Assembly (NCBI GenBank): GCA_032622095.1
Contig: CP136064.1
Location: 262,549,863 to 262,613,862, forward strand
From: Siphonodentalium dalli
Lineage: Eukaryota; Mollusca; Scaphopoda; Gadilida; Siphonodentaliidae
Direction: 5' to 3'
Length of the DNA stretch: 64,000 nt
Below are positions 4,788 through 39,726 of this stretch, in pieces. Made by a program: the position numbers and the translations under genes. A model generated the notes under the pieces. The model worked only from the letters and a program-made list of their open reading frames with translations, did not search any database and was not told where the DNA came from. The number at the start of each line of letters is the position of its first letter. The first letter of the stretch is position 1.

Positions 4788-4939
4788 CGATCCGAAACAT
4801 TTGGAAAGTGTATTTTGATTGTTTACCGCGCGAGGGGCGTTGTATTTTGATCGCGCGCACACGAATCGTAATTTACGACAAATTTAAAACACAAAAAGTA
4901 GCCCATGGAACAACTTTAATGGAATAGATGTAATGTGAC

Positions 4940-19250: not shown

Positions 19251-19436
19251 AACATATCTTGCATGACACTAAAGCCGCATGGATTGTTGCCAACAGAACA
19301 TGCCACGACAAAGGAGGAAGATTGGCCGCCCTTCCGACTGAACATGAGGTGATGCGTGCGGCGCGGAAACTGGCTGACGGAGACTCCGCGTGGATCGGAG
19401 GACTCAAAAACAACACTGGCTGGGAATGGCGGAGTG
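19251..19436 (+). CDS. C-type lectin domain A, N-terminal half
   Basis: Acceptor ATACAG (19245-19250) and donor GTGAGT (19437) bound a 186-nt phase 1-1 exon. The product shows the lectin signature AAWIVANRTCHDKGGRLAALP, then EHEVM, then WIGGLKNNTGWEWRSG: the helix-alpha cysteine, the GGRLA turn, the WIGG core strand and the WEW strand. One N-glycosylation site (NRT) and one near NNT are visible. The domain stops exactly where lectin long-form loops would begin. Its missing half is found 20 kb away at 39557 (phase 1), with both WSC domains between. No other second half is visible between 19437 and 22358. The early hairpin cysteines of long-form CTLDs are absent, so this is a short-form domain. 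Confidence 0.88.
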
Positions 19437-19950
19437 GTGAGTGTCCATCGTGCCGTATGAGAAACTAGCTTCGGTTATGCGCCTGCATGTGGGCTAAGTT
19501 AGCTAGCATTGTACCCTAATACATCTAATTACTATAATAAGTCCAATGAACAAATTTATTAGAATCGCATTGCCACACAAACGTGATATTGACCATCGCG
19601 CTCGTTATTACGCCACCTGTGGTGTATCTAGCTGCTGAGATTTTGATATTGCGTGGTGGACAGGGCGAATGCATTGTGGGGCTTTTATTTATAGAGTTGG
19701 AAATTCCGTTTATTTAAAAGTCGGAACTACGCGACCAGTAGGCCAAGTCCAGTAAAACGGTTCGTTATAGGTGCTGGTTGTTATTGTTATTTTAACGGAA
19801 TTCTGAGTTGGTCATTCGCGAAACCAATATATTTTATATTCTATAATTAAAACCGTGGGTATATAATATATGATCCTCTTTATGGATATTGTAGGAAGGT
19901 AAATTTAGCTAAAGCGGTGGGATATCTTGCAAGACAACACATTTCGGTTC
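19437..19950. repeat. Intronic segment directly repeated at 20.99-21.57 kb
   Basis: AATTTATTAGAATCGCATTG-CCACAC and TTAACGGAATTCTGAG followed by AACCAATATATTTTATATT recur, diverged and in rearranged order, around 21050-21120 and 21540-21575. The duplicated segments flank the foldback element at 19951-20655. No coding content. Confidence 0.5.
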
Positions 19951-20655
19951 GCGCTATAACTGCTCAATGTTTTAACGTGTTACACAACGTCTGATAAAAA
20001 GAGTTCTATCTGGAATATTCACACTATTTTTTCAGAGAACATGCATAGAGTAAACATAGTCCCATCGGACTATCGTAAAGTAGTTCCGTTTAATTCGGGA
20101 TTAATTAACCCTCAGACTGCCGAAACTGCCGACAATAAATTCGCTTGTTCGTGTCCCCCGAAAATCAAACTTGCCTGTTTAGAGGTCCCATTTTCGTGGC
20201 TAATGGTGATAGAATCACAATTTTCAGTCAAGTTCATGGATAAATTACATTACACTTAATCGGCTTATGTCCGCGGCCATAAACCTGCGTTTTGATAACA
20301 ATTTATTCGAGACAAACTGTTGCGCGGGTATCAGTCGGCGCTTATCGGTTGAAGTTATTATGATCGTGCAGCCTGCACGTGCAACAAGTGTTCAAATACA
20401 ACAGAAGAAAAAAATACTATGTCAAATAAATAACGTGATCAATGGACAGACAAGTTTCATTTCCGTGGGACACGAAAAAGCGAATTTAATGTCGTCAGTT
20501 TCGGCAGTCTGAGGGTTTTAATTAATCTCCTTTACGATATCCCGATAGGACTATGTTTACTCTATGTTCTCTGAAAAAAATTGGTGTGAATATTCCCGAT
20601 AGAACTATTTTTATCAGACGTTTTGTAACACATTAAAACATTGAGCAGTTAGCGC
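19951..20655. mobile_element. Foldback element with ~250-bp inverted arms
   Basis: The left arm (GCGCTATAACTGCTCAATG ... CTCAGACTGCCGAAACTGCC) is the imperfect reverse complement of the right arm (GGCAGTCTGAGGG ... CATTGAGCAGTTAGCGC). The arms pair over most of the element, leaving a loop of about 200 bp. Frames at 20041-20259 and 20267-20512 are by-products of the arms. No transposase visible. Confidence 0.85.
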
Positions 20656-21602
20656 AATTTTCTGGAATTTCGGACTATTTCGTCTATAAAAATACGATGA
20701 GCAACTGAAAATGTTTTTCAACATTCTGGAAGGGGTATATGTCCATGGTATATATGTTTAAAATTTCACGCATAAACTATGACAGATAACAAAGTTATAA
20801 TTAGTTTTGTAGGCCCACCATAAATCCCCTATAATAAACGCATGCCTCCGTAAGCACATGGCTTTGCTGTGGATACTTTCGTTCCCAGCATGGATCATTC
20901 TCGCTATCTGTAACATGTCTATGAACAATGGCTGTGCCATGCACTCTTAGCTTTGATCCGCATTTAGAAGCATTCTGGTGTGGCGAATGAGAAACCTGCA
21001 GTAATTTATAAGCCGTAGTTCATTGTAATAATTTGAAGAATTACTTATCTTAACGGAATTCTGAGGCGGTCCATTCATTTAACCAATATATTTTATATTA
21101 TGATTTATATTTATGGCTAATAATATGATCTTGGTGGCGTTACCATTTCTGACTATGGTTTTCTTGTTATTATTTTGTTCCCGCGATAAATTACTCGTCA
21201 TCAGTACGTGGAGGAAATGGCTGTGCGGATGCGCGCGCATTCATTGTACCATGCGATTTTTTACATTAGCTTAATTCGCTTCATTCCTGCGAATAGCAGT
21301 CGAAGTTATTATCCTATACTAATACAAGTATATATGAAATGCAAGCCATCTATGCAATTATTTATAGTGATACTTGTTTCAGGGGGTAGCAGGAAGACAG
21401 CCCGATAGGGCTAGGCCAACCCCCAACAATATATACAGCATTTACTTTATTATATGTTACTGCCATTGTATTATTCATGTGTATATTGTAAATAAATTAT
21501 CCTATCCTACATCTGATTGCTCATAATCTAATAAGACTAATGGACTTAAATTTATTAAAGTCGCATTGCCACACAGGTATTAGAGCGCCATTCGCGTATC
21601 AT
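20656..21602. other. Intronic stretch, nothing recognised beyond the direct repeat noted
   Basis: I specifically looked here for a second half of C-type lectin domain A and found none: no Trp/Cys pattern between an AG and a GT border. Confidence 0.5.
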
Positions 21603-22182
21603 TTTTAACATTATTGTGTTTATATAAGGATTAACTGTCATGTGGACTGTTTTTATGGAGATGTAGCCGCGAGCTGAGTGGTCCCCAAGAAAGTCTGGAA
21701 ATAGTGTTTCTGTCATTTGCAGAATGAGGTCCTCAGAGGGTGAATTTACTGATGCTATCCGAAGGGTTTTACATACAAGTTATGACCACTCACCTCGCGG
21801 TTACATCTCCATAAAAACAGTCCACATGACAGTTAATCCTTATATTTATATACATTTAGCGAAAAAGCCACTCTTGTAAATGTATTTAAATCGAAAAGTG
21901 TATCGTGACAAAACCAGCCCAAAATATCCCATAGCACCCTTGGCAAAAGTTAACAGGAACCATTTCTCTTTATATTGAAACCCGATGATTTATTAAGTCA
22001 ATCCTGCGCGAGTCCAAATGCGCCCAAAACATTACGCGTTCGTCTTTCCAAAACCAATGGCGCGTCGATGTAATTATGAGGCTGCAATTATGACCTCTTG
22101 CGCGTTCACCGAGAAATAATTACAACTAGCCACGTGGGCGCCGACTAATCGGAATGCTGGCTTTAGTGATAATCACACTAAG
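21603..22182. mobile_element. MITE-like element with a terminal hairpin, copy 1
   Basis: One end is a ~230-bp hairpin whose arms read ATAAGGATTAACTGTCATGT then GGACTGTTTTTATGGAGATG. The body holds GAACGCGTAATG-type sequence (as its complement CATTACGCGTTCGTCTTTCC), and the other end is GCCACGTGGGCGCCGACTAA followed by a small TTAGTGATAATCACACTAA palindrome. A second copy in the opposite orientation is at 59727-60232. No coding frame. Confidence 0.8.
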
Positions 22183-22358
22183 TATGTAAATATATGAAGA
22201 TATAGACAGTACCATGCAACGAATGCTCTCTATTCAGCGGTTTGTCTTTGCTCGCCCATAGGAAAATAGTATGTAACCACTCACAAACCACATATTATCT
22301 TCGATGTCACATACGTATGCTCTATCGGTTATACCAGCTTATCCTTCTTTGTTTTCAG

Positions 22359-22489
22359 ACAGGAGCAAATTGTACGATCGAGTTGGCTGCTTTACCGAGA
22401 AGAAACTCACACCACGTCCAGTCTACGATACGAAGAATTTTGGAAAATGCAAAAGTTATTGTACTAATTATACTTACATGGGCATCAAG
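22359..22489 (+). CDS. WSC domain 1, N-terminal half
   Basis: Acceptor TTTTCAG and donor GTGAGT (22490) bound a 131-nt exon, phase 1 in, phase 0 out. The product reads DRVGCFTEK, then GKCKSYCTNYTYMGIK, which is the opening of a WSC domain (GCF, then C-x3-C, then the Y-x-GI/GL strand). WSC domains are putative carbohydrate-binding modules found in fungal wall sensors, polycystin-1 and many invertebrate receptors. It continues in frame into the phase-0 exon at 25348. The phase-1 entry accepts the lectin exon ending at 19436 (junction codon GAC). Confidence 0.85.
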
Positions 22490-25347
22490 GTGAGTGCACA
22501 TACACACTGACTTCGACAAATACATCACGTGTAGTTTTCTTCATCTTTTCAAACATGGACAGGGATGTGGTGACATGACACTTGGGGGTCTGAGTGTCCC
22601 ACTCAAACTTATTATGTAAGGTAATATGATGCCATGTAATTTTAGGACACATATAGCTCGGATTTATCCTTTATGTTGGTAAAGCAAAGCGATGCTGTGA
22701 AGAACATTTACAGCTATTTACTTCACAGTTTCATTTTAAGTAGGGAGTTAACGACATCCAGCAGTTTAATTATGTTGGTAAAGATTTTTAGCACATGGGA
22801 AATTCATGTCTGCCATAACATCAGTTGGAAATATGACTCACTTTTGGATCGTTATCCCTTATTTGAAAGAACTATTCTTTCGGCCAATTTGACCCCATAG
22901 CTGGGTGGCCCGCCCCAAATACCCAATATAAACTTCGCCACCCTTCAACTCCACACAGTAGGGCCATACTGATAGTAGGACCTGTTATGGACCATTTCCG
23001 AGGATAGTTCGGATTTTTGACCCCATGGTTTGCCTGCCCCGATGGTGGGGCGAAAATGGCACCAAGCATTCTAGAATCGTTCGGATATCGGTAAAATTTG
23101 TCCCACGGCACCGGGGGGGGGGTGGTGAAGGGCGATGTTGTTTCTGGTGGATATGCGGGGCATGCAAGCCACACTTGTCTTCAAATTTGCCGAATTCGGA
23201 ACAGTTCTCGTAAATGGTCCATAGGCCAGCCCACACCGCATGTGTCACCCTGGAACTACCACGCGCATATCTTTTTTACACTCTTTACAAATATAATATT
23301 ATTTTATTAGAAAATCGGCTTTGATCATAAGATAAGGCATTTTCCTTGATTAAGTGAAAAGCATATGAATTGTGCGAACGTCAAATTATATGTCTACCAA
23401 CAATTCGCTGATGAGCAGAGTCCGTGAAATTTAAAGTTCAGTAATGTCAAATTACATTGTTTTGTATGGATGTTTGTATCTGCTTTCAGTTGTCCGTATG
23501 TATGTTGAGTGCTCTTCATTTTACATGTATAGTACGGATATGTAGCAATAATTGTTAGTGTAATATATTGTTTTCTAATCAAGAAGCGTGCTATATTATT
23601 ACGACGATGATCCATATATTAAGCATGCGCGAAGTAGTGAGGACTGAATTATGTTTTGAAAGACTATATTCCGATCTTGGTAACGCAGACAAGCGACCTT
23701 AATTCAAGACGTCTAATTCTTGATATTACATAACGAATTTTCTCACAATATGTGTGTGTTTCATTCTGAAATATGGTACATAAATATATTATTAATGTGA
23801 CATAAACTTTAAGAACTATACATACATTGGCACTACTTATAAGTCAACTTTCGATACTATATGACACGAACATTCCTTAAAATGTCACTGTCTTCAGACC
23901 AATACTATGTACAAAATAGCATTCTTTCACGAGTGAAGTTTATATATCTATGACAACCTATCTGAAGATCATGAGATGGAACTTGATTAAAAACAATGAT
24001 AATTATTTTCATCTAGAAAGCTAATACCCATACATGATATATTTGAGAATTGTCCTACCGTGCATGTTGGTCGATGAACAATTGGGTTGAGGTGAGTTAA
24101 AAACCATAATATATTTAACCTCTCAAACGTATAAAACAATCATTATTTTTGTCTTCTCTTCTCACCAAGAACTTTTGTAAGATATAACTTTTTCAACAGT
24201 GCAGTTGATATATCCACGATTTCATTTCTGAAGGTCAAGAGAGGAGATTTAGTTGAATTAAATATTCCTTGATTCAAGGTTTTTCAGAATTATTTTCATT
24301 TGGAGAGACAGATACTGTTCAAATCAAGCCTGTTGTTCAATATAACTGGTCTCATATGAGTTTTAGGTCACATGTCAGTTTCCAAATATCCGGCTGAACA
24401 GGTATATCTAATAATGTGGCTTATTTCCAGTTGATATCTTCCTGTTTGAGTGCAATAGGCTGCATACCAACAGTTGTTTTCATTGGGCTGAAATATTTGC
24501 GACTGCTGTATTCTTCATTTTCATGTATAGGGGTATGATGTTATAGCATGCACTTAAAAACTTCAACCCAGTATTACGACACAAATAAAGCTTCCCTTGA
24601 TAAAACCAAGACAATAAGCTATTTGGTGATCGGATTGCTGTGTTAAATTATTAATTAGTTCAGCAGTTCTTCGTACATAAAGGGTCAATAATTTAAACAT
24701 GCAAGTGTATGGAACTCGATTGTGTTTGTCTTCTTTTATATTTGCTCAGATTTTATATACAAAGATGAGGATAGGTAAAAGTCTATATATTTCACCAGAT
24801 AATCAATATAAATTCTTTGTTGAAGATATCATTCAATTTTGCCTTGATTTATGCAAAACGTTCGTCTGGTCCTTAACAGTTTAAAAAAAAAATATCAGTC
24901 CATATTAATTCATCATTAGTACATTTGACCATTCTATCTCAATAGTTTGTAACTAGATCTCAATGAAAGTATATATGTAGATATATTGATAAATTGATCC
25001 ACTGCTTTATTATTATATCCATTAATGTGTTTTGTTTCGACTTATAAATCCTTGAAATTCCAACACCGACTATTTGCCACATGGGGTGTGAACCAAGTCA
25101 CTCCCATCTTATGTATGTATTGTCAGAAATGTGGAAACTCCCTAATTGAAATGCGATGTAAACTAATATACCCACAGTGTTTGAATTTCTATTGTAGATC
25201 GTGCCATAATAATGTCTAGGAAAGTCCTTCGGTTGTGAGCCCAGGTCTCCAAATCTAATATTTTGTTCTCAATGTACGCATCTATGTGGAGTAATTTTTT
25301 CTAAGATTACAAGTTCTGCACATATAGTCCGCCTTTATGTTCAACAG
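22490..25347. other. Intron 1 of WSC domain 1
   Basis: Mostly AT-rich. A GC-richer patch at 22890-23240 carries a G9 run and open frames on both strands that match nothing I recognise. No other exon seen. Confidence 0.45.
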
Positions 25348-25462
25348 GGTGGACGAGAGAATTGTGTTTGTCCAGACGCACAACATATTAGACCGATGTT
25401 CCGAGGAACACGCTGTGAGGTTTCAGACAACAAAGAATATACAGTCTCATTGACTAAAAGTG
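25348..25462 (+). CDS. WSC domain 1, C-terminal half (lacks last cysteine pair)
   Basis: Acceptor TCAACAG and donor GTGAGT (25463) bound a 115-nt exon, phase 0 in, phase 1 out. GGRENCVCPDAQ matches the WSC centre (G-x-x-x-C-x-C), and TRC supplies a sixth cysteine. The usual tail C-P-G-D...C-G-G, present in WSC 2 at 38288, is absent; the exon ends NKEYTVSLTKS instead. WSC 1 therefore has six of eight cysteines, losing one disulfide pair. It could be a diverged but folded module or one drifting out of function. Next in-frame exon: 34438 (junction GAC). Confidence 0.8.
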
Positions 25463-26142
25463 GTGAGTATCTATTTCAACCTTACACCTATATCAGGTAT
25501 TATCTAGATGTAACTTCCTTGATTAATATATGTACATGCCACAATTCCTGCGTTGCAATTGGATGGTGAATATAAGTCCAAGCGCCGTAAACAGCCAGGC
25601 ACGCACTTAGCACGTGCGGGTTGTTTTATGGGTACCGTCAACGATCTAGGTATGGCATAAGACGGCTAGAAGAATACCTGTATACCAGCTGAGTCGTGTG
25701 GAAAGTAATATATACATTTAAGTTCCATTCCGCAAACTCTTCAACACATTACTGTTGTCCATATTATGATTTCAAGCAAGTTGGCTTGTGTCAAGTGGGT
25801 TTCATTAAATAATATTTCGCTGAATTTGTGTTTGTTTTATTATATTTTACCGAAACCAATTTTTTATGAAAATATGATTAGTGGTTATGCATGATTCACT
25901 GCTGCATATATACGTAATATTACTTTAATCCAAGGATTATGAAAGTTTCTATAAAGACAATGCCTCTCAAATAACTCTGGCTATTGAATATTGCTCAAGC
26001 AACAGTAAGCTTATGCTATAATAACATTATTTTCATAAAACCGTTTAATGTTATATTCATACGAAAATCAGCGCCGTGTAAGCACCGTCATTGAAACAGG
26101 AAAAAGAAGATAGATAATGTGAAAGTTATTAGCTCTATGTAT
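25463..26142. other. Intronic stretch, nothing recognised
   Basis: No exon, tandem repeat or strong inverted repeat seen. Confidence 0.4.
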
Positions 26143-26319
26143 GGATAGATCACCTCAACGAGTGTCTTCATAATTAAGACGGTCGGCGTGCGTCTTGATT
26201 GGGAGTGATAAACTCTACTCGCGAGCGCGGAGCGCGAGTGAGTAGAGTTTACCACTCACAAACAAGACGCATGCCGACAGTCTTAATTATGTAGACACGA
26301 GTGGGGTGATCTATCCAAT
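26143..26319. repeat. Long imperfect hairpin just upstream of the recombinase pseudogene
   Basis: GGATAGATCACC at the left pairs with GGTGATCTATCC at the right. The arms continue through CATAATTAAGAC/GTCTTAATTATG, GCGTCTTGATTGGGAGTG/CACTCACAAACAAGACGC and ACTCTACTCGCG/GCGAGTGAGTAGAGT, meeting at GAGCGCGGAGCGCGAG. The arms are about 85 bases each. It ends 66 bases before the first ATG of the Crypton-like frame. Confidence 0.85.
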
Positions 26320-26384
26320 TTAGACGATTATATATGCAATACATTAGTCCTGACTGCCACCAGTCACCAAGCCATATTTGCAAA

Positions 26385-27738
26385 ATGACATCGGAATTTG
26401 GGAACTTTAACCCAGGACACCTTAGCCAAATTGATTTCGAACGTTTATTTTCCGAGTAAGAAATGCCACAGGAAACTACTACTAATCAGCAGTCGAGGCA
26501 CGCCGATCCTGTTACAGATACTGAGTTGAGACAGAATATCAACAATTGTGTGCCAGTGAAAACAAGGCGACAAAACCCTTGGTGTATGAACGCATGGATG
26601 GATACCAACCGAAATAACCAGGATATATCGAAATCGAATCCAAACTACCCTGTGCCTGCGGACATTACCAACGAGACACCCTTACACACATTGGATTACT
26701 GGCTGTCAAAATTCGCATATGAGGTTAGGCGCAGTGACGGACAGACGTATTCACCGGCCATATTGGATCAATTGTTTGCCGGAATTCAACGTTACATGTG
26801 GACAGAACTTGACCTGGTAGATATAAAATTCTTCCAACCCGATAACGTTTCGTTCAAAAATTCCAGGAGAGCCCCTGATGCACGTATGAAAGAGCTGACA
26901 GCCGCAGGGATAGGTATTAAGAAGAAACGAGCTGATCCTGTTCTTATAGAGGACGAGACAGCCCTTTGGGATAAGGGCGTATTCGACGAGAATACTTCTG
27001 TCCGACTGACAAACATTGTATTCTTTTATAATGGTAATGCATTCGGATTTCGGGCTATGGACGAGCACAACAAGCTACATGCTGAACAATTCAAAATTTT
27101 TGTGTTCAAACGTAAACTTCATTTAAATGCTCTTGTTTTCGCATGAACATCAAGGCAGACTTACCCAGCGTACAGTTGAACCGAAATTGATTGAACACGT
27201 TGCCCAGCCAGACAATCCACGGTGTTTGGTGAAGATTTTCGAGAAGTATTTGTCGCTTATTCCAAATGAGGGTCAATTTTACCGGCGACCTTTAGACCCC
27301 GGACCGGGAACCAATGTTCCCAGATACGGGAAACAAACAATTGGAGTAAATACACTTTCGCAAATGATGAGAACGGTTTTCAAATCGGCCAACATTGACA
27401 CAACCGACCGAGTGATTCGAAATGATAGTGGAATGGTCACATGTTGTACTACGTTATATAACGCGGGATTTGGGAATCAAGCTGTTACTAGTCGCAGTGG
27501 TCACCACAGTGATGCTGTCCAAAGGTATAAACGACCGTTGGAACCTCTTAAACAAGCGGTAAGTCAGAGTGTAAATCCACCGGTTCCGGATAGTGAACCC
27601 CTATCAGTGAAAAAATCGCGAAAGTGGAAACTCGTTGCGCGTGTGGTGCTACTTCAGTTCCAACTACTCGTAGCACGCCTAAACGATCATATTTACTCAG
27701 AATCAGAGTGCACGAACACTACAACTCTGTTCTCATAA
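26385..27738 (+). pseudogene. Crypton-like tyrosine recombinase (DUF3504-type), inactive
   Basis: Intact ancestors would cut and join DNA with a catalytic tyrosine. The frame starts MTSEFGNF at 26385, has an in-frame TAA at 26457, resumes, then needs a frameshift near 27090-27130 to continue to 27738. Family landmarks: LDYWLSKFAYEVRR, the first catalytic Arg in FYNGNAFGFRAMDEHNKL, the RLTQRTVEPK strand, YNAGF, SRSGHHSDAV and RYKRP with the nucleophile Tyr. The box II H-x-x-R, normally N-H-S-G-R-x-T here, reads NDSGMVT: His to Asp and Arg to Met. So besides the stop and frameshift, two catalytic residues are lost. It lies in the intron between WSC 1 and WSC 2. It could in principle be a domesticated recombinase relic, but the breaks argue for decay. 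Confidence 0.87.
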
Positions 27739-28308
27739 TTAAAGGCGACAAAGAAATTGAGATTGACTTGTGATTATAGATGTTCCTGAAATTGTATAAT
27801 AATTTATATACACTGCATTTTCATTGAAATTTGTTAGATGTTTTGTTTCACCCACCCCAGCCCACCCATTTCCCCAAGAAGAATGTCATATGCAACAATT
27901 TCGAGTAGTTGTTAAGACAGTCTCGCTTGTGTTTTTTTATTATTAAGCAATCGAACTGCAATCATTCGAGCGTCTGAACAACTCGAACCTAATTGTCTGT
28001 TGTTCAATGCTCGAATGTTGGTTTGTTGATTGCTTGGTAAGACAACCCAAGCGTAGTATCTTAACCATTAAGAGTCACACTTAGACAAAAGAACTTAGGA
28101 TCTGTATCGTCTAAGGACATTTGGAGGAAGTTGACTGAGACAATGGGTGACATAATTACACGTGTACGACATGAGTCGAACACACACATATGCAGGTCGC
28201 AATGAGCCATACAGCTATGGTGCAGTTGGATCGCTTCATGTGACTGAGTTCTGGTCCATGCGAAGTGAGAGTAGGACTAAATCATGTAAACGATAATTTG
28301 CACATAAC
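27739..28308. other. Intronic stretch, nothing recognised
   Basis: Holds a small imperfect repeat of TCGAATG/CATTCGA words at 27960-28020 and no exon. Confidence 0.4.
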
Positions 28309-28779
28309 AATGGAGCTTTCCACAGAGGCCACGCCCACAGCGTAGTCCCGCCCAATGGCAATTTATTAGAATATATTCGACCAATCAGATGCCGAGCCGG
28401 CCGCTCGCTGCGGAGATTTTTTCGACGCCATCTTTCTTCACCCTAATTTTGATATCCATGCATACATTCAGGGTTAAATTGGCTATATTCAAACAACTTT
28501 TTTGTTGTCAAATCATAATATACTGAGATTTATATTTACGGCATGATGTTATAAATTTATCCGTGATTATAACAATGTTTTTCGTTTAGCATGACACTTG
28601 TCATAATTTTCACATTTAATGGCAAAACGAATGTATGTTCTCTGGTTTAGATATATTAGAGTTCAGTTATCTGTCTGTCTGTTCTGGTGTGTATGCAATT
28701 TTTCTTCCAGAGCCCTTGATCGATTTTAACCAAATTTGGTGTGGTGTGGTGTGGTACTCGGGATAGCGCGGCAGATGTT

Positions 28780-29180: not shown

Positions 29181-29315
29181 CTTCTACGGAAGCCTATTAG
29201 GGCCATTTAATTTTTGTTATATATTCATTAAAATATTTCCTTTTTTATTTAATTGTTTATATATATTCATTAAAATATTTCCTTTTTACTTTCTTTTTTT
29301 ACTTTCCACCTGGGA

Positions 29316-29925
29316 TATAACTTTTCTCCCTGGAAATAACTTATCTCCCAGGGAGATAACTTTGCTCCCGGGAATTAACTTATCTCCCTGGGAGAAAACT
29401 TTTCTCCCGGGAATTAACTTTTCTCCCAGTGAGATAACTTATCTCCCAGGGAGATAACTTATCTCCCAGGGAGATAACTTTTCTCCCGGGAATTAACTTT
29501 TCTCCCAGGATATAACTTTTCTCCCGGGAATTAACTTTTCTCCCAGGGAGATAACTTTACTCCCTGGGAGAAAACTTTTCTCCCGGGAATTAACTTTTCT
29601 CCCAGGGAGATAACTTATCTCACAGGGAGAAAACTTTTCTCCCGGGAATTAACTTTTCTCCCAGGATATATCTTATCTCCCAGGGAGAAAACTTTTCTCC
29701 CGGGAATTAACTTATCTCCCTGGGAGAAAACTTTTCTCCCGGGAATTAACTTATCTCCCAGGGAGAAAACTTATCTCCCAGGCAGAAAACTTTTCTCCCG
29801 GGAATTAACTTTTCTCCCAGGGAGATAACTTATCTCCCAGGGAGAAAACTTTTCTCCCGGGAATTAACTTTTCTCCCAGGGAGATAACTTATCTCCCGGG
29901 AATTAACTTTTCTCCCGTGGTGGAA
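29316..29925. repeat. Left array of ~22-bp palindromic CTCCC units
   Basis: About 28 units alternate two forms: TTTTCTCCCGGGAATTAAC and TATCTCCCAGGGAGATAAC. Each unit has its own small palindrome (TCTCCCGGGA or TCTCCCAGGGAGA). The array is the inverted counterpart of 32207-32640. Confidence 0.9.
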
Positions 29926-30064
29926 AATCACGTGATGTGATAGGTTTCACGTAACCGATAACATTCAAACATATCCTCCTACGGTTAAAATACACATGTC
30001 ACGTGTCATTGTCTGATGTCCTGGCGCGAAATAACATTTTGACAGTCAATATATAACGCCTGAT

Positions 30065-30725: not shown

Positions 30726-31040
30726 CCTGGTGTAGCATTCTGTAGTCGAAACAGAAACCAGACCTGTGCCTGGTCGTAGAAGACATTCAGGAACTGAGGA
30801 TATGGCTGGAGTGTTTGACTGTCGGAGTGTTTGACTGTTTATAGTATTGGACCATGTTATGTTGTTATGAAATCATGATATTTCGCCATTAACTATAAAG
30901 TTACCTTCGTATCGAATGCTGCCTATTCCGATTGATTATTTTATATTTTTTTGTGAATATGTGCCATGGCTGTCGCGGACCCTGGACTCTAGTCTAAAAT
31001 ATACTGACCATCGCTAGTATAGTGGTGGGTCCATTTTGGA

Positions 31041-31676
31041 CTACCGGTGATCGTGAAATGCACCAACTCGCTCTAAATTGGACCTATAGCACATGTTTGT
31101 GGCGAAACAATGGGTACATATCATTAAACGCTCTTTATAATGACATGGCGAAACGATTCTATTGAATGCATAAAGTATCCACGGCATCCTTAAACACTCT
31201 TTATGACGTGACGCAACATTAAATTGAAATAAATAGGCGGACCCCCGGATAACATCGAGGTGGTAAAATAATAATCTAGCGTGCATTGCCCTATACCCGA
31301 GATCACTGCCTGTGTTATTTAACTCAGATTCTATAGCCGATAGCACATCCATAATGTCATCCTTGAATTTTCTCCGTGTCAGGCCCATCGATTTCATAAT
31401 TCTCTTCAAATGTCGCAAACTCATTGTTATGCCATGGTACAAATGAAGAAAACATAATATTTCGATGTATTCAAATCCATGGCTAAAATATCTTTCTATC
31501 ATCCATTCTCTACTATGGTTCACTGTGTCCAAAGGTATGTATTGTGGTGGGTGTGCTTCACATATCACTATAAATAACATCAGGAGAACTTTAAAGGTAC
31601 GGTTGGCCTTGGCGGTGGGTATCCTGTGAAAATATTTCCACCCGTCAAAAACCGCCACAAACAGAAAGAACATCAA
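31041..31676 (-). CDS. Helix-turn-helix part of an integrase-core-type transposase, truncated
   Basis: The 211-residue frame contains a block IERYFSHGFEYIEILCFL, then YHGITMSLRHLKRIMKSMGL, TRRKF and LGYRAMHARL. That order (YF-x-x-G-x-x-x-x-EI, then LKR-x2-K-x-x-GL-x-RR, then GYR-x-MH-x-RL) is what I know from N-terminal regions of eukaryotic rve/integrase-core transposase-like proteins, possibly the IS3EU type. The catalytic DDE core that should follow is missing; the frame ends in unrelated cysteine-rich sequence. Two hydrophobic stretches at the start are probably not part of the original protein. It lies inside the 4.6-kb TIR element, antisense to the receptor, and is the best candidate for a remnant of its mobilising protein. 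Family name is tentative. Confidence 0.6.
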   Translation of the reverse strand: MMFFLFVAVFDGWKYFHRIPTAKANRTFKVLLMLFIVICEAHPPQYIPLDTVNHSREWMIERYFSHGFEYIEILCFLHLYHGITMSLRHLKRIMKSMGLTRRKFKDDIMDVLSAIESELNNTGSDLGYRAMHARLLFYHLDVIRGSAYLFQFNVASRHKECLRMPWILYAFNRIVSPCHYKERLMICTHCFATNMCYRSNLERVGAFHDHR

Positions 31677-32206
31677 AATGTAGACAGACTTTGTCCGTAT
31701 ACAAATAAGAAATATCGCATAAACAGTATGTTATTGTCATATATTTGACCATTGTTATGTAAACAAAAGCATAAAAAGTTACTTTTCTGGTGTTTGTTTA
31801 TATTATGATGGTAAACAAAAAGAGCGTTATTTGTTGGTCAATTCCTGATATGGAACTAATAAAGAGCGTGTATGTCATTTGTGTGTGATTAGCCAGTAGC
31901 ATTGTGCTGTCTTCTGTAACACAATCAGGCTCTAGCTTAGGTAAACTATAGTAGGTCTTTATGATAACATGCTGTTTACGCGATGGTCATGGTATATATG
32001 AACGAAACTGTATGCGTTTTAATGTTTTTCAGTTTACGGTGTTTGGAACAAATTTGAATATTTTCGACAATTAAGGCCTCCCGTACCTTTACCTTTAACA
32101 CCGTCATACATACATCCATGATACGAAAGACTTGCGATGATAATAACAATGAAAACAGCTGGAATGTCGAGTGTAATCCACACTACACCTGTCACGTGAT
32201 TTTCCA

Positions 32207-32640
32207 CCGGTGGAGAAAAGTTTTCTCCCTGGGAGATAAGTTAATTCCCGGGAGAAAAGTTATCTCCCTGGGAGAAAAGTTCATTCCCGGGAGAATAGTT
32301 TTCTCCCTGGGAGATAAGTTAATTCCCGGGAGAAAAGTTTTCTCCCTGGGAGATAAGTTAATTCCCGGGAGAAAAGTTATCTCCCTGGGAGATAAGTTAT
32401 CTCCCTGGGAGAAAAGTTAATTCCCGGGAGAAAAGTTTTCTCCCTGGGAGATAAGTTAATTCCCGGGAGAAAAGTTTTCTCCCTGTGAGATAAGTTAATT
32501 CCCGGGAGATAAGTTATCTCCCTGGGAGAAAAGTTAATTCCCGGGAGAAAAGTTATCTCCCTGGGAGAAAAGTTAATTCCCGGGAGAAAAGTTTTCTCCC
32601 TGGGAGAAAAGTTAATTCCGGGGAGAAAAGTTATCTCCCA
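32207..32640. repeat. Right array of ~22-bp palindromic CTCCC units
   Basis: About 20 units reading AGTTAATTCCCGGGAGAAA or AGTTATCTCCCTGGGAGAA, the reverse complement of the left array. A repeat-coded peptide (GDKLIPGRKVFSL) arises on the + strand and is not a gene. Confidence 0.9.
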
Positions 32641-32874
32641 GGTGGAAAGTAAAAAAAGAAAGTAAAAAGGAAATATTTTAATGAATATATATCAAAAATT
32701 AAATAAAAAAGGAAATATTTTAATGGATATATATAAAACATTAAATGGCCCTAATAGGCTTCCGTACACTTCGGAAGTCGATCTCGGGTAACAGACAATA
32801 TTTATGTGGATAAAGTATTTTTACCAGTGGGCGGGACTACCGATGTGGGTGTGGCCTCTGTGGAAAGCTCCATT

Positions 32875-33690
32875 AGGAAGCAAGGAGCACATGCCAAGCA
32901 GTGCGTTCACACATTATGATATATCTACACGTGAAGTGCAATATCTATATGGATTCATTCAGTCTGTAAAAGGGTGACCCGATTAAGGCATCTATGCACT
33001 AAAATATGTCGATTGATCACCACTGGAAGGTTTATTGTGGCCTGTAGTACTTATGCACCTTTTATACAAACTAAATGATACATAGAAATGATGACGTGGT
33101 CACACCAAAATCTCGCACACGCCTTTCTCACGTCGGTGGTGAGTTTTCATTCTCGATAGTTGTGTGAGTAGGTCTGTGGAAACTACATTGTATGCACACG
33201 GGCCCGTAATTGCGAATTTAAGTTTAAACCGGGGATTTCATTATACAAACAACACCGTCGACGCTATATTTGTATTATATCGAGGGTTTTGCATAATATG
33301 GGCCGATTATATATGGAATCCATCAACCGGTTACACCGAGTTTTCGCTTTGAGCCGATGTTTCCGATGTTCAAATCGAACGTCGTGAACAAGACCGCCAT
33401 ATTACATATGCAATTTTGAGCTAAGGTTAGATTATCTGGTTATTGCTTGTTTGATGTTCTGAAACCTTTGTTGAAAGTCATTATGTGCCATATTGATGCG
33501 TGATAAAAACTCTTCGCACGCATACCTGAAATTCAACTCTGCGATAAATACCTTCATACATAAATTATCCTGGGTTGAATTTTGTCCTGTATATGTATTG
33601 TTTTATAATCTTAATTAAAAGTGTGCACCACGAAGAGAGGACATGATTCCAGAATTGTTTTTTCATTCGACGTAGATATACTTATATACC
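32875..33690. other. Intronic stretch with a decayed foldback copy
   Basis: Around 33318-33410 the words ATCAACCGGTTACACCGAG and GAGCCGATGTTTCCGATG resemble the foldback family at 131 and 13221, with much of the right arm missing. No exon. Confidence 0.45.
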
Positions 33691-33694
33691 TTAT

Positions 33695-34330
33695 AATTAC
33701 CTCATATGCTCAGATATACCAGTGATTCTAGTTCGAAATAACGTGAATATTAAAGGTGTAGTACTATACCATTCTGAATTTAAAATCGCACAGTACGCAG
33801 ATGAAACAACTATTATTTTAGATGGGTCTGAATCTAGTCTCAGTGAGGCGTATTCAAATATGGATGTCCTTGCTCAGTTGTCAAGATTGCGTGTCAAACC
33901 AGAGAAATGTCAGGCTTCCTGGATTGGCACCCTTGCATCGTATATAAGACTATCTGCCCAGAGCTGAATTTGTCATTGTCTTCATATGTTACTCTTCAAG
34001 AAATTCGCTTCAGAACATGTTTGGAAAAATGATGCAAAATTATGAATCAAAATTAGCAGAAATCGGAACAGTAGTACATGGAAACACAAATTGTTGCCTC
34101 CTCTTGGTAATACTAATTATAACACTATTATTCCAAAATTGACCCACTTTCTTATCACTTCAGTCACTTGCACTCTAAATCTAAATACTATATTTTGTGT
34201 ATGCTGTATGAAAATCTAAGCGTGACCGAATTGAACGCCGACAGTTATGCCAAAACCATAAAACAGGTGGATTGAAATGGTAGATATAGAACTTTTCAAT
34301 ATGTCGATGAAAATAGTTATCACTGTGTGA
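33695..34330 (+). pseudogene. Decayed fragment of the L1/Tx1-like LINE family
   Basis: Translations in shifting frames match the LINE at 4940: KIAQYADETTIILDGSE aligns with its YADD region, EKCQASWIGT with its KCQASWIG, and KSKRDRIERRQLC then GGLKMVDIELFNMSMKI with its downstream segment. The second catalytic Asp of YADD is Glu here, and stops and indels are numerous. It ends about 100 bp before the WSC 2 exon. Confidence 0.85.
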
Positions 34331-34437
34331 ACTTCCGCTTGACAGTGGCAACTTATTTTAACTTATGAACCTGAAAACCTGAACCCATACGTTACTATAG
34401 AAACTCAATACAGTCTTTTACACTTTCAAATCTGCAG

Positions 34438-34559
34438 ACGGCGGAACTGATACCTATCAAGGCTGTTACATCGTCGACGACGCAAACTTTATTATAGATG
34501 ACAATTCCCTGCAGAAATGCCAGATGATGTGTGGGTCTTATCCCTTCATCGGTCTTCAG
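34438..34559 (+). CDS. WSC domain 2, N-terminal half
   Basis: Acceptor TCTGCAG and donor GTAGGT (34560) bound a 122-nt exon, phase 1 in, phase 0 out, exactly the phases of the first WSC exon. The product has TYQGCYIVDD, then LQKCQMMCGSYPFIGLQ: the GCY start, C-x3-C and the PFIGLQ strand of a WSC domain. It continues in frame to 38288. Entry from 25462 gives GAC; entry from 19436, skipping WSC 1, also gives GAC and keeps frame. The exon border inside the domain falls at the same point as in WSC 1, so the two are duplicates of one cassette. Confidence 0.9.
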
Positions 34560-37500
34560 GTAGGTCACTTACCATTTTAAATATACTCTATAACTGCGAA
34601 TGTACCAATAGCGGCCAACCCTCATTTCGTACGCTGTATTCCGGGTGCTTTAGAGCCGGGCGCAGGATAAACCGGACTCTGAATGCATAACGCTGCCGTC
34701 ATGCAAGTTTGATCTTTTGCCACGGGCTGGTGTCCGCCGCCCGTGTACATGTTCATGAGTCCGTGTGTCAGTCAACACTTTCATTCGGCCCACCCTGCAC
34801 GCCACATTCCTTATCCGATCATCACCAAACTTCATACTGATCTTCGGTGCGCCCTCTAGATGGGAGGCATCAAATATGTTGGAAAATCGATAATAAACGT
34901 GGCCGCCAGGGGCCATTTTGAATTCCAAACCATCGGCACACATTGCAGCGCACATATATTGGATAAATCTCTTAAGAATGTACCGGCATGTTTAGGTTCA
35001 CCTCTAGATGGAAGCTATCTGAGTTGGACTTTCTATAAACACCGGCAGCCATCTTGGAGTTCACTCCGGGGTGACATATACATGTAGATGAGAGCCGAAT
35101 ATCGTTGGAAAATATGGCGGCCAGCAACCATCTTGGATTTAGCATTATAGTCAATTGACACACTGCAGGTCGCATTTCTTGGAACAAATGTTTGCAATGA
35201 ACACAGTTTCATATGTGCACAGTACAGCCCCTTCACTAAAACATTTTGACTTTCCTTTTTCTTTGTCATCCCATTGACTGTTCTTGCAGCATATCATTAA
35301 CGCCTATCCAAAGTGTCATTATCGGTATAGCATGCCGAGTAAGATGAGTATTATCAAAGTTTGCGTCGTAATTATCGGGGCAAAAACATTTTTATTTTAA
35401 ATTACTGAGGTTATACATGATGATCATATTTTGAACTCCCACCATATAATTCGTTTCACTTTTTGTCACGAAATATTAAAACAAATCTTCTTTATTTGAG
35501 TAATGTTATTTATTTAAAAGATCAATCTGTTACACTCTCTCAAAATTAGTTGATTTCTCAGTAACGGCTTCGTGATTATTACAATCTCAACAGAGAAATC
35601 AAAGGTCAACATCAGTCTAATTATTTTTTTGAAGTCTCCTAACTATGCATTCTCAGAAAGAAAAAAATGTCTTCGAACATCGTCAGAATGCTCGAAAAGT
35701 GACACATATGCGAGGCGATCCTAAGTCCAGTTCTTTTTTGAAGTACAATATATCATAATATATAAAGTATTTACTGTCCGATTTTCACGGTTAATGGGTC
35801 AAATCTTACATAATTATTTGTACAATTAAAATTCTGCTATTGATTAAAACGTATACTTCAAAATTGAAAGATATAATTTGAGCTGCGCACTGTAATTGTA
35901 ATTTGGGAATGGACAATATGCCAGGTTATGCAATCCCGGCCGTTGACAGTAGTATCGCAGCATTCAATTAATTAGAAATCGTGCATATGCATGTAGTGCT
36001 CCAAGTTACAATGGGTACTGATGGACTGCTGGTTATGGTATGTATATAAATGTATGACAACCCACATATATAGCTATAGGTGTCGTCTGAGTCGCAAATA
36101 ACTCAACCATTCGCATATGTGCGTGTTCAGTACCGGCAACTATTTGGATCGTACAAATGACCCAATTAGTGTGAGATTTTGGAGGCCAAATTTATAATTC
36201 CTTATTGAACAAGGTTGTTTATATTCCACAATGTTAAATACCTGAAATCAACGCCATTCGTACGACACTGGCATCGCGATAATTCACACAACCATCCGTG
36301 GGTAACGCCTCGAAAACAATAAAAATAATATGACATAGGTGAGCCCGCTCTTTATGGTTCACTTCTTGTGGGTGAGGACAGCATAGACGCTCTGTATACG
36401 AATCGAGTATTGGAATGTTTGCTGGGCACACATAAATTCTAATTTTTAAATTCAAAGCGCTCCCCGTGGGAATGGGTCTTTTGGTCATTTCTGAATATAT
36501 TCTGGTATATATATTTAAAACGAACAGACGGCGGTTTTATGATGTCTTATCAACGGCGCACCTTTAAGCTATAATTGATACGCTGCTCTGTCTGAACAAT
36601 CAAACCCATGTTTAGACAATGAATCAGATTGATGTTTTTAAATATTGCACAAAAATCAAATTCATGAAAACCAGGAAACGAACTGTAGGGTGGATATAGT
36701 TCTAAATTAATTAATATTTGTTGTCAGTCCGAGACCGTTGCCGCGAGTAAAAGCCATTCATCTGACCATTATTATACCAACACATCATATCGTAACTGCT
36801 CATTGTGTTATGGTCGTATAGGATTTAAGCATTAATCTATATATATATATTTCACCCGATCTCCATGGAAACTTGGAAGTCAATATGTACGGATTCGATT
36901 ACTACATACGCACATGTATTCGCTACAGACTACCAGACCCCTGCCATTGGAATTACGGAACGTTGCGTAATAATCACTGGCAAACTACGAGTTAAATTTG
37001 TTGTTAAAATTTGACCTTTCTAGTTTGTTGTTATGCATGTTAATAAATAGCGTAATTCGAATTCCACATGCAAATATTTATGGGTTGACGCTTCAAAATT
37101 GAAAATAAAATCGCCATTGCACTCCTTGTGTAAATGGGCCCATGGTTCGATCTGAATATGTTCTGATATATAAAACGAGATGATGTAGCTTTATGGTGTC
37201 AATTCGGTCAGCGCATCTCTAAAATATAATATACAGTAAACACAGAATTTAAAGAAATATATTATCGCCAACAGCTCGTAAACGAGAACGCTTTTTATTA
37301 CCCATCGCTTTTGTGCGACACACTCATTAAGGCTCTTTATAATGGAACTCCAATCTAATTGGTCCAATCTAATTATTTTCGGACATTGAACTCATACATT
37401 GTTATGGTGTTATTGTGTCGAATCGGACAGGTCATCTTTGTAATTAAAACCAATATCCTACAGTTTATATCCTATAGTCTCCCAGTAATGGTGTAGTAGT

Positions 37501-38287
37501 GCATGTTAAGACATGTTACGGAATACATTGTTGTCCACATTCTCCACCTTCCTCTACTGAAAATTGCCAGATAATTGATGAAAAGTACGGGTTATACGAT
37601 TAATATCATTGGTAAATGAAATTGATTTAAATTGTCTGCCAATTTGCCATAATTAGAGACAACTTTTTTGAAAGTTATAGATTTGTATATAATTACTTTT
37701 TTATAACGTCTATATGAACAAACTTAGTTATGACTCAATATCACACTGTTGGACTTTTGGCAATTTGGCGACAATGGGAGTTTAATATCGCAGTTTTCTT
37801 CGGTTAATATCGCAATATTATTCGCTCAATATCGCACCATTAAGCGCGATAAATGTTCTGTATTGCGCTATAATCGCTTCCTTTTATAAATTAACTGCGC
37901 TCAATATCGCAATAAAGGTGCGCATCAATATAACACTTCATCTGACTGGTACTGTATCATATCATAATTTGCCGTTGTTGGCTCGATGATTGCATGCACA
38001 GCTCGCCGCATGATGGGCTTCTCGTAATCGTAACTACGGGTATGACAAAAACAACAACAGATGTAAAGAACACAGATTGTAGTGATGTACATGTAGTACT
38101 CAATTCGGAATTCTTATCAGTGGTTATTCATTATGCGAAAGGTATCTTTGCCGCGATGCGCAATACAGTCCAATGGCAGCATTGGCAGGTAACCAAGATG
38201 ATACGGGTAATTATACCCTTTCCGTCTTAGTTACCACACGCACATACAAGTAACCCTGCAACAGAACCGTATTATGTGTACATGCAG
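34560..38287. other. Intron inside WSC domain 2
   Basis: Contains repeat-derived sequence at 34860-35170 with GGCCGCCAGGGGCCAT, CAGCCATCTTGGA and ATGGCGGCCAGCAACCATC words, and an AATATCGCA cluster (listed separately). No further exon is convincing. Confidence 0.45.
37780..37925. repeat. Cluster of AATATCGCA / GCGATA words
   Basis: TTAATATCGCA, TTAATATCGCAAT, CTCAATATCGCAC, GCGCGATAAA, TTGCGCTATAATCGC and CTCAATATCGCAAT lie within 150 bases at irregular spacing. The spacing is not a clean tandem period. It may be a degenerate satellite or a protein-binding cluster; nothing in the sequence decides. Confidence 0.5.
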
Positions 38288-38420
38288 GGCGGGTCATGCT
38301 ACTGCTATATGGATTTCAATCTGCGACAAGACGAACATGCCTGCAACATTCCGTGCCCCGGAGATCCTGGCCAATCATGTGGTGGTGAGAACAAGACGAT
38401 GGCGATATACAAACGACACG
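38288..38420 (+). CDS. WSC domain 2, C-terminal half
   Basis: Acceptor CATGCAG and donor GTAAGT (38421) bound a 133-nt exon, phase 0 in, phase 1 out. GGSCYCYMDFN, HACNIPCPGDPGQSCGG and the closing MAIYKR strand are a complete WSC second half. With 34438-34559 all eight conserved cysteines are present, so WSC 2 should fold normally, unlike WSC 1. One N-glycosylation site (NKT) is seen. The phase-1 end joins 39557 (GTA), which is the second half of lectin domain A rather than a new domain start. Confidence 0.93.
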
Positions 38421-39556
38421 GTAAGTATATCGTTAATATTGTGCATTGTGAGATCCATGTTTGTAGGACCGACATGGTGTTTGAGCTGTCATACCCAAAC
38501 TCTTGTCGTAAGATTCAACTTCAAGCCCAAATCAACTGCAGTTGGAAATTTCAGACGTACTTTAAGATGAGATGGTTCCGATAGTTTTGAGTTTTTCAAC
38601 AAATTTCTAGGATAAAATAAGTGGACTTTATACCAAGATTATGACATGTTACTTCCTTGAATTAAATTGTGGGGCTGAAATGGACATCAGGTGGAAATTT
38701 CCAGTCATAGGATAATTTTTTATTGTAAAGTTTGAAAGTTCGATATATCCGTCAGAAGACACCAACTGACGGGCGTGCATGTTTGGTCTTCAAAAGGGGT
38801 TCACATTTTACCACCAAAAACACCTACCCGCGTCCCGGATATGCTACAGTCTGCTTTCGACGAATCCGCCTGTCGGTGACATATCAGTCGGGTAGATTAC
38901 GTGTCCGTTTGGCACACTATATTAGCGCAAATGCGAGTGTCGCTGGTGCAATTCCCAAACCAACCAAGCCTATATGATAGTGCAGTAGTAAATATTACTG
39001 ATGCAAGAATTTTTCAGCGTCGACACCTCGAAAATGGGGGGTGCTGAATAGGTAATGTGCATCGCTCGGCGAATTTACAATAAGTAAATGGAGATATCAA
39101 CCTGGCAACTGACGTAGACATGCAAGCGTCCAACAATCAGGCAACACAACTGTTCATATTTCCCTTTACTACTCCGGTGTTTGGCACTCTGTGGCCATCA
39201 TACTTACAAATATTTCATGTCATAGACCACAGGAAAGGTACGACTTCACGGCGGTGTAAACATTTGGATATTCTGAAGAACATCCAATCTGCAAGCACGA
39301 TAAGCGGGTGTCACCACATTATATATGGTGCTCGAAATTCGGGTGGTTTTTAAGTGATTGTGTCTTAACACATTGTACATATAAACATATACTTCAGAGC
39401 AAAGAGTAGCATTTAAACATAATCCGATAAAGGAAAATGGAATATTTCTATTGTGTTTCAGAATTCGGCTAGAATCCATAGGCTGAACTGAAGTTGTCGC
39501 CCCTCCCATTATCTAAACCGCTTGATTGCGTCTCAGCACATATCTTGTATTTGCAG

Positions 39557-39726
39557 TATCAAAATATGTCGGCTGGGGTCAAGGGCAGCCCTTAGCAGCA
39601 AACAAGTGTGCATGTGTTTCTGACTTTGATGATGAGACATCTTTTAGTTGGAAGGCATATGCATGTGGTGTCAAAAGGCCAGCCTTGTGCACTAACTATA
39701 GTAATGCTTACTCAGGAAATCCACAG
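39557..39726 (+). CDS. C-type lectin domain A, C-terminal half
   Basis: Acceptor TTTGCAG and donor GTAAAT (39727) bound a 170-nt exon, phase 1 in, phase 0 out. YVGWGQGQPLAANKCAC, then WKAYACGVKRPALC has the lectin W-x-x-GQP loop, the C-x2-to-C4 cysteine set and the final strand. GQP resembles the first half of a QPD/EPN calcium-sugar tripeptide with Asp replaced by Leu, and no WND follows, so classical calcium-dependent sugar binding looks unlikely. It starts mid-domain: the matching first half is the exon at 19251, and directly joining 19436 to 39557 gives GTA and a continuous lectin domain. I see no other first half between 38421 and 39556. Confidence 0.9.

What the first reader, a model, noticed from the sequence alone, without database searches (positions are those of the whole stretch)
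19251..39726. Two WSC domains nested inside one C-type lectin domain
CTLD-A is cut after WEWRSG by a phase-1 intron, and its second half appears only at 39557. Between them lie two complete two-exon phase 1-1 WSC cassettes. CTLD-B is split at the same point (IWTNG) with no insert. Either the protein carries WSC modules in the lectin's long-loop position, or the WSC exons are alternative cassettes spliced in and out of a normal lectin; direct joining of 19436 to 39557 keeps frame and restores a textbook CTLD. I searched both neighbouring introns for missing lectin halves and found none.
Basis: partly seen in the sequence, partly recalled or inferred. Interest (0 to 1): 0.9.

Follow-up and report, generated by a model that had tools for sequence, protein, structure and literature searches.

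The report
Lectin domain interrupted by two WSCs
In this animal genome a family of receptor-like genes carries two WSC (putative sugar-binding) modules inside the middle of a C-type lectin domain, and the same layout recurs in ten related gene copies, so it looks like a maintained gene design rather than a misread exon.

Summary
Exons 19251-19436 and 39557-39726 encode the two halves of one C-type lectin domain (CTLD-A); joined exactly as spliced they score 39.7 bits for Pfam Lectin_C, the first half alone 24.1. Between them lie two two-exon phase 1-1 WSC cassettes. WSC2 is canonical (40.3 bits). WSC1 is a shorter six-cysteine form that Pfam does not report alone. CTLD-B is split at the same point, with no WSC exon found in its intron.

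The decisive evidence is in the same genome. In 10 of 10 loci carrying both CTLD-A halves as separate exons, all four WSC exons lie between them in order and on one strand, with identity down to 41-43%. Relatives with short introns make hidden halves very unlikely: a 516-nt last intron holds no open phase 1-1 candidate exon, a 515-nt first intron only one non-lectin stretch.

The likeliest product is a type I receptor: signal peptide, CTLD-A with a 167-residue double-WSC insert at its long loop, CTLD-B, transmembrane helix, tyrosine-rich tail. Exon skipping is possible by phase and untested, as no RNA was available. Origin by shuffling WSC exons into a phase-1 intron inside the lectin is inferred.

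The parts
18389..18470 (+). putative signal-peptide coding part of the first exon (MKIRRKSNHFCLYLLMLVVLHSLITFN), ends phase 1
   Evidence: ATG and donor checked; stretch 18329-18470 scores 16.3 for its two splice sites together; 78% identical peptide upstream of C1 in paralog P2; the DNA match to P3 begins only downstream of it, at 19041
19251..19436 (+). CTLD-A first half (C1), phase 1-1, ends WEWRS|G at the start of the long loop
   Evidence: Lectin_C positions 3-58; W-x-W-x-[S/R]|G ending and phase in 10 of 10 loci
22359..22489 (+). WSC1 first exon (W1a), phase 1-0
25348..25462 (+). WSC1 second exon (W1b), phase 0-1; short six-cysteine WSC-like module
   Evidence: no Pfam hit alone
34438..34559 (+). 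WSC2 first exon (W2a), phase 1-0
38288..38420 (+). WSC2 second exon (W2b), phase 0-1; canonical eight-cysteine WSC with W2a
   Evidence: (Pfam WSC 40.3 bits)
39557..39726 (+). CTLD-A second half (C2), phase 1-0, with the remaining lectin cysteines
   Evidence: joined 39.7 bits; same start phase in 10 of 10 loci
51741..51924 (+). CTLD-B first half (B1), starts phase 0 after C2, ends IWTN|G phase 1
   Evidence: follows C2 directly in paralog P3
53197..53367 (+). CTLD-B second half (B2), phase 1-1; acceptor weak (3.6 bits)
   Evidence: conserved in P3
61162..61273 (+). putative transmembrane exon (TVIIGVVVGLLLVVAIC), phase 1-2
   Evidence: splice and hydropathy scan; no homology check
63123..63627 (+). 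putative last coding exon: cytoplasmic tail YFLYRRRR...DDDYGY and stop, tyrosine-rich
   Evidence: open frame and acceptor, phase 2 start fits the TM exon; inferred

Best explanation
The locus is one member of a multicopy family of type I membrane receptors in which a pair of WSC modules (167 residues, four exons) sits inside a C-type lectin domain. The insert lies in the turn after W-x-W-x-S, at the start of the long loop. It most likely arose once, when phase 1-1 WSC exons entered the ancestral phase-1 intron that splits CTLDs in this family (CTLD-B keeps the empty version), and was then inherited by duplication. The normal product is SP - CTLD-A(first half) - WSC1 - WSC2 - CTLD-A(second half) - CTLD-B - TM - tyrosine-rich tail. 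SHOWN at DNA level: exon order, phases where read, conservation, absence of lectin-like halves in two short flanking introns of relatives. INFERRED: the single origin; signal peptide, TM and tail; constitutive inclusion of all four WSC exons; closure of the lectin fold around the insert through the disulfide between the Cys of the first half (NRTC) and the last Cys of the second half (ALC), with adjacent ends because the split is in a turn; transfer of ligand binding from the lectin, which lacks the Ca2+/sugar motifs, to the WSC modules or a joint surface; phosphotyrosine signalling through the tail.
For: Six exons confirmed; joined halves complement each other in Lectin_C, 39.7 against 24.1 bits. 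Order C1-W1a-W1b-W2a-W2b-C2 on one strand in 10 of 10 loci with both halves, on contigs C4 and C9 (W1a of P9). C1 donors and C2 acceptors phase 1 in 10 of 10 loci; WSC phases agree in the copies whose junctions I could read. A 515-nt first intron (P2) and a 516-nt last intron (P3) hold no lectin half; a second-half profile built without this family scores at most 0.9 bits in the three first introns, against 23.0 for C2 and 15.0 for B2 as controls. WSC2 dN/dS 0.24-0.29; W2b is the most conserved of the five exons compared in eight loci (mean 70%). Lectin Cys and Trp positions invariant in 11 first and 11 second halves. A distant relative on contig C1 keeps W1b-W2a-W2b-C2 in order.
Against: No transcript or protein evidence. 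WSC1 is not recognised by Pfam alone and has dN/dS 0.78-0.86 among three copies, so it may be weakly constrained. C1 dN/dS is 0.63-2.27 (small counts). The generic first-half profile is insensitive (6.7 bits for C1, 2.5 for B1), so the last-intron negative rests mainly on the 516-nt P3 intron; the longer last introns of window and P2 hold 34 and 19 open candidates. In P9 the C1-WSC1 unit is duplicated, which would leave a surplus lectin half if everything were spliced in. P5 has a stop in its C2 hit and one flagged in its W2a hit, so it may be broken. For the two distant relatives only part of the layout was seen. No structure model of the nested form was made.
Confidence: 0.83

Rival explanations
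1. The WSC exons are optional cassettes: a plain CTLD isoform (19436 joined to 39557) is made alongside nested forms with one or two WSC modules, so splicing switches the receptor between modes. (Not exclusive with the best explanation.)
For: The outer junctions of both cassettes are phase 1, so both or either one alone can be skipped in frame; the joined domain scores 39.7 bits; in P9 a 99.7-99.8% identical second copy of the C1-WSC1 unit suggests tolerance of optional use.
Against: Both cassettes are present in 10 of 10 loci; phase symmetry alone is expected from exon shuffling. No RNA data.
Confidence: 0.3
2. Two ordinary CTLDs flank the WSC pair, and the first reader and I have missed the second half of the first and the first half of the second.
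For: Lectin halves in separate exons are hard to see: whole-frame Pfam scans miss the known CTLD-B exons; the generic first-half profile is insensitive.
Against: P2 first intron (515 nt): one maximal open phase 1-1 stretch of 100-260 nt, without the second-half cysteines and tryptophans; P3 last intron (516 nt): none. Second-half profile at most 0.9 bits in three first introns, against 23.0 and 15.0 in controls.
Confidence: 0.03
3. The two halves come from two different CTLDs whose inner halves were lost when the WSC pair was between them; the present protein still pairs the two outer halves as a hybrid CTLD.
For: Would give the same present-day layout; Pfam complementarity of the halves does not distinguish it from an insertion.
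Against: Needs two matched losses at the same intron position; CTLD-B shows that this intron position exists without an insert, which makes one insertion simpler.
Confidence: 0.12
4. Local assembly artefact or a dead gene: exons put in this order by misassembly or transposon activity.
For: The window holds mobile-element-like frames and inverted repeats; seven further C1-like hits (E < 0.001) have no second half in the hit list and 6 of these 7 are flagged with stops; P5 has a stop in its C2 hit.
Against: Same order at 10 separate loci; the aligned exons are free of stops in window, P2 and P3; low dN/dS for WSC2.
Confidence: 0.02

Closest known systems
C-type lectin-like domains (Pfam PF00059), e.g. 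mannose receptor CTLD, lithostathine
   Same: Fold signature, WIGL-type and WxW core, cysteine pattern; joined CTLD-A matches mannose receptor (35.3 bits) and lithostathine (32.1 bits) in the PDB; an intron downstream of the WIGL motif is reported in fish antifreeze-type CTLD genes (PMC514892, passages)
   Different: Interrupted by two foreign modules; EPN/QPD or WND motifs present in 0 of 11 aligned second halves
WSC domain (PF01822)
   Same: WSC2 40.3 bits, eight cysteines
   Different: Encoded in two exons with a phase-0 intron; WSC1 is a six-cysteine short form; both lie inside another domain
Polycystin-1 / sea-urchin REJ proteins
   Same: WSC and CTLD both occur in this animal membrane protein family, and together in human PKD1 (PMC1934368, passages)
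   Different: As I recall (from no call) the domains there are side by side, not nested; REJ, PKD and GPS domains were not specially searched for here, and the Pfam scans that I made listed none
Domain insertions (A1-B-A2) in general
   Same: Host domain interrupted by small modules; reported for 20% of multidomain proteins in one survey (PMC13114784, start of abstract in the listing, passages)
   Different: 'lectin' and 'WSC' do not occur in that paper's main text; here two modules in tandem sit in one host, bounded by symmetrical phase-1 introns

Membership tests
C-type lectin-like domain (PF00059), CTLD-A | Whole-domain profile match above the curated cut-off | tested here: met
   Joined halves 39.7 bits, cut-off 22.6
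C-type lectin-like domain (PF00059), CTLD-A | Conserved cysteine frame and tryptophan core | tested here: met
   Invariant C18, W48, W58, W60 in 11 first halves; C17, W31, C36, C44 in 11 second halves
Ca2+-dependent sugar-binding C-type lectin | EPN/QPD and WND motifs (recalled definition) | tested here: not met
   Present in 0 of 11 second halves (alignment read by eye)
WSC domain (PF01822), WSC2 | Profile match above cut-off and eight cysteines | tested here: met
   40.3 bits, cut-off 27.8
WSC domain (PF01822), WSC1 | Profile match above cut-off and eight cysteines | tested here: not met
   No hit reported alone, six cysteines; WSC-like by exon layout and weak cross-match to WSC2; the full model shows two WSC stretches at the lax E of 10, the weaker one not located
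Nested (A1-B-A2) domain insertion | Host halves flank the insert in one transcript | not testable with these tools
   Gene order met in 10 of 10 loci; no RNA available
Type I membrane receptor | Signal peptide and one transmembrane helix | tested here: inconclusive
   Candidate exons by sequence only; signal peptide conserved in P2

The most novel reading that the evidence does not exclude
A new receptor architecture: a C-type lectin fold without the calcium/sugar motifs turned into a holder that presents two WSC glycan-binding modules from its long-loop (normally ligand-binding) face. It would be assembled by exon shuffling into a phase-1 intron inside the domain, expanded into a multicopy immune-type receptor family, with splicing able to add or remove the modules in frame.
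Probability: 0.35. Interest if true: 0.8.

Novelty: new variant of a known kind. Interest (0 to 1): 0.62.

Why it matters
Exon shuffling is usually described as placing whole domains beside other domains. Here it appears to have placed two modules inside another domain, at the loop where C-type lectins normally bind ligand, and the result is present in ten gene copies. If the protein folds as drawn, it shows that the CTLD long loop can accept whole foreign domains, gives a natural template for grafting, and defines a receptor family whose binding surface could be switched by in-frame splicing. It also warns that such genes are easy to mis-annotate, since each lectin half alone is near or below detection.

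Tried and rejected
Missing lectin halves in the flanking introns: rejected. Whole-frame Pfam scans, plus strand only: 39.7-51.9 kb in three frames and 51.6-64 kb in two frames gave no lectin (two of those calls scanned the same frame of 51.6-64 kb by my mistake). The third frame, which holds both CTLD-B exons, was scanned when I checked the report and gave nothing either, so such scans are blind to lectin halves and were not used as negatives. Search of the 5.8-billion protein set with the 431-aa model: 1397 candidates, none at E <= 0.01; I take this as few or no close animal proteins held, not as absence elsewhere. Literature: six searches showed me no title or abstract start about a WSC inside a CTLD. 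I saw listings only (one search listed 15 of 54 papers), plus passages of PMC514892, PMC13114784, PMC1934368, PMC2926785, PMC8242945 and PMC4581086; in the last two WSC occurs once each, in a list of domains and in a table. The CTLD-B query on the own genome did not complete, so the number of CTLD-B copies is unknown. WSC2-like hits outside the ten loci (41 of the 61) were not checked for flanking lectin halves, apart from the two distant relatives and two dead-looking copies on C3. Structure prediction of the nested form was not sent, because as I read its rule spliced sequences are not accepted. Organism not identified. Alignment A3 was not used.
Full report
WHAT IS THERE. The window is part of a 2.23-Gb, nine-contig genome (G000:C4:262549863-262613862) of an unnamed organism, by its gene content an animal. 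Reading the exons directly gives, on the plus strand: C1 19251-19436; W1a 22359-22489; W1b 25348-25462; W2a 34438-34559; W2b 38288-38420; C2 39557-39726. C1 enters and leaves in phase 1; each WSC cassette enters and leaves in phase 1 with a phase-0 intron inside; C2 enters in phase 1. The 12 splice sites of these exons score 6.1-12.2 bits on a rough consensus. The insert is 246 + 255 = 501 nt, 167 codons. C1+C2 joined as spliced scores 39.7 bits for Lectin_C, C1 alone 24.1, C2 alone is not reported. WSC2 scores 40.3 bits; WSC1 alone gives no reported hit. In the full 431-aa nested model Pfam still reports WSC (37.9 bits, two stretches) and Lectin_C (37.0 bits, three stretches) at the lax threshold of that call.

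REST OF THE GENE. C2 ends in phase 0 and the next exon, B1 (51741-51924), starts in phase 0; B2 follows at 53197-53367. Spliced, CTLD-B scores 22.9 bits, just over the cut-off of 22.6, and the B2 acceptor is weak (3.6). In paralog P3 the sequence matching window 39.87 kb is followed at once by that matching 51.19 kb, so the stretch between them in the window is extra relative to P3. CTLD-B is split at the same W-T-N|G point in phase 1. Its intron shows no WSC exon in the window or in P3: WSC profiles give at most 3.8 bits there, against 97-110 bits for the WSC exons inside CTLD-A, which were among the sequences the profiles were built from. A signal-peptide-like stretch ending in phase 1 lies at 18389-18470 and is 78% conserved in P2. 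A transmembrane exon candidate at 61162-61273 and a tyrosine-rich tail at 63123-63627 fit in phase. These three outer exons are inferred from sequence.

THE FAMILY TEST. The C1+C2 query on the same genome (54 candidates scored, 43 matches at E <= 1) gave ten loci with both halves as separate exons, 12-53 kb apart: the window (P0) and P1-P8 on C4, and P9 on C9. WSC2 exons lie between the halves, in order and on the same strand, in 10 of 10. WSC1 exons lie between C1 and WSC2: W1b in 10 of 10 and W1a in 9 of 10 by the genome search; W1a of P9 was then found upstream of W1b in both its copies. In all ten loci C1 ends W-x-W-x-[S/R]|G with a phase-1 donor, and C2 starts in phase 1. WSC exon phases agree in the copies whose junctions could be read; W2a junctions were read only in P0-P3 and in the distant relative M1. 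Several genome-search hits are flagged with a stop (W1a of P1, P3, P6; W2b of P3, W2a of P5; C2 of P5). For W1a of P1, P3, P6 and W2b of P3 the aligned exon itself has none; P5 was not resolved for W2a and does show a stop just after the last Cys of C2. Mean pairwise identity over eight loci (P5 and P7 left out as close relatives of P4 and P6; W2a left out) is 54-61% for C1, W1a, W1b and C2 and 70% for W2b, lowest 41-43% (60% for W2b). So the layout is old and inherited, not local noise.

NO HIDDEN HALVES. P2 has a first intron of only 515 nt and P3 a last intron of only 516 nt. Listing every AG...GT stretch of 100-260 nt that is open in phase 1-1 gave 2 overlapping candidates in the first (ITRHQHVEEMAV..., no lectin features) and 0 in the second. 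A second-half profile built without this family found C2 at 23.0 and B2 at 15.0 bits, but at most 0.9 bits in the first introns of window, P2 and P3. The matching first-half profile was weak even on known exons (6.7 and 2.5 bits), so for the last intron the exon listing is the real test. Told against: the first introns of window and P3 hold 11 and 7 open candidates, and the longer last introns of window (1136 nt) and P2 (1594 nt) hold 34 and 19; none looks lectin-like by eye, and their best first-half scores are 1.4 and 3.9 bits, the latter reached by 8 of 100 shuffles. One short piece in the CTLD-B intron scores 9.6 bits with the second-half profile, above all 100 shuffles; I did not follow it up, and it lies outside CTLD-A.

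SELECTION. Among window, P2 and P3, dN/dS is 0.24-0.29 for WSC2, 0.78-0.86 for WSC1, 0.34-0.60 for C2 and 0.63-2.27 for C1 (counts are small, no significance test). This suggests that WSC2 is translated in at least some product; C1 looks fast-evolving. Part of the window-P2 comparison is affected by very recent exchange or duplication (98% identical over 22337-24160).

MECHANISM. In the PDB alignment the split falls just after the WHWSS of lithostathine and the WQWS of the mannose receptor, i.e. at the start of the long loop; the placing in the loop scheme is recalled. Ends of a turn are close together, which suits an inserted module. The lectin disulfide between the first-half Cys and the last Cys of the second half, both invariant, would close the domain around the insert. 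None of the 11 second halves has EPN/QPD or WND, so CTLD-A is probably not a calcium-dependent sugar binder, and ligand binding may have moved to the WSC modules. That last step is inference; that WSC modules bind sugars is itself a recalled, general statement. A tyrosine-rich tail suggests signalling, also inference.

DISTANT AND BROKEN RELATIVES. A relative on contig C1 (M1, 111.2 Mb, minus) keeps W1b (19.8 bits), W2a (30.7), W2b (11.8) and C2 (22.3) in order; its C1 exon was not found in the 6.8 kb upstream that I could fetch, W1a was not found on the gene strand, and a 17-residue W1a-like piece lies on the opposite strand. One at C4:289.11 Mb (M2, minus) has C1 and a W2b-like exon (22.7 bits); no C2 in the 11.4 kb seen. 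Seven further C1-like hits at E < 0.001, M2 among them, have no second half in the hit list; the six others are flagged with stops. P9 carries the C1-WSC1 unit twice, 99.7-99.8% identical in the stretches compared, 11 kb apart.

WHAT IS NOT SHOWN. No RNA or protein evidence exists here; no other animal genome could be searched; the organism is unknown; no structure model was made. In-frame skipping of one or both WSC cassettes remains open. Six literature searches showed no report of a WSC inside a CTLD in the held open-access library, which lacks most subscription journals. WSC and CTLD in one protein family are known from polycystin-1 and sea-urchin REJ proteins (PMC1934368, passages). Insertions into introns of symmetrical phase have been judged a minor route of domain gain (PMC2926785, passages), which makes a conserved case inside a domain notable.

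VERDICT. Observation confirmed and strengthened; nested layout real at gene level; constitutive nested protein likely but unproven. A new variant of a known kind (domain insertion in a C-type lectin receptor family).

Noticed in passing
17767-17883 (+): A single LDL-receptor class A exon (Pfam 25.5 bits) lies about 500 bases upstream of the putative signal peptide; P3 shows no DNA match to this stretch in the about 11 kb upstream that was fetched. It may belong to another gene or be an upstream alternative exon.
   Followed up: partly
G000:C9:210203066-210247999 (L022, L023, L072, L073): In paralog P9 the C1-WSC1 unit is tandemly duplicated (11 kb apart, 99.7-99.8% identical where compared): recent duplication, alternative exons, or an assembly artefact.
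   Followed up: partly
G000:C3:62792493-62792983 (L024, L026, L027): C1 exon pieces with stops recur every 175 bases, as if the lectin exon had been caught up in a satellite-like tandem array.
   Followed up: no
G000:C3:37399067, 38825050 (L055, L056): W2b exon copies, 71% identical, with CATAAG where the donor should be; look like dead exon copies on another contig.
   Followed up: no
29264-29993 and 32183-32650: Inverted arrays of a 19-20 base repeat (translating as an FLPGIN/FSPRE-type repeat) inside the WSC1-WSC2 intron.
   Followed up: no
4934-7780 (+): Long open frame (949 aa) that looks by eye like a non-LTR retrotransposon reverse transcriptase; no family search was made.
   Followed up: no
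41103-42131 and 44795-45822: Inverted repeats of 402-427 bases, 91-94% complementary, in the stretch that is absent between C2 and CTLD-B in P3: probably a mobile element.
   Followed up: no
22337-24160: 98% identical to paralog P2 over 1.8 kb while other matched parts are 73-94%: a sign of gene conversion or recent exchange between copies.
   Followed up: no
51925-53196: A 15-residue piece in the CTLD-B intron (KLMDVMCSELEEFMC) scores 9.6 bits with the generic second-half lectin profile, above 100 of 100 shuffles: chance or a decayed half.
   Followed up: no
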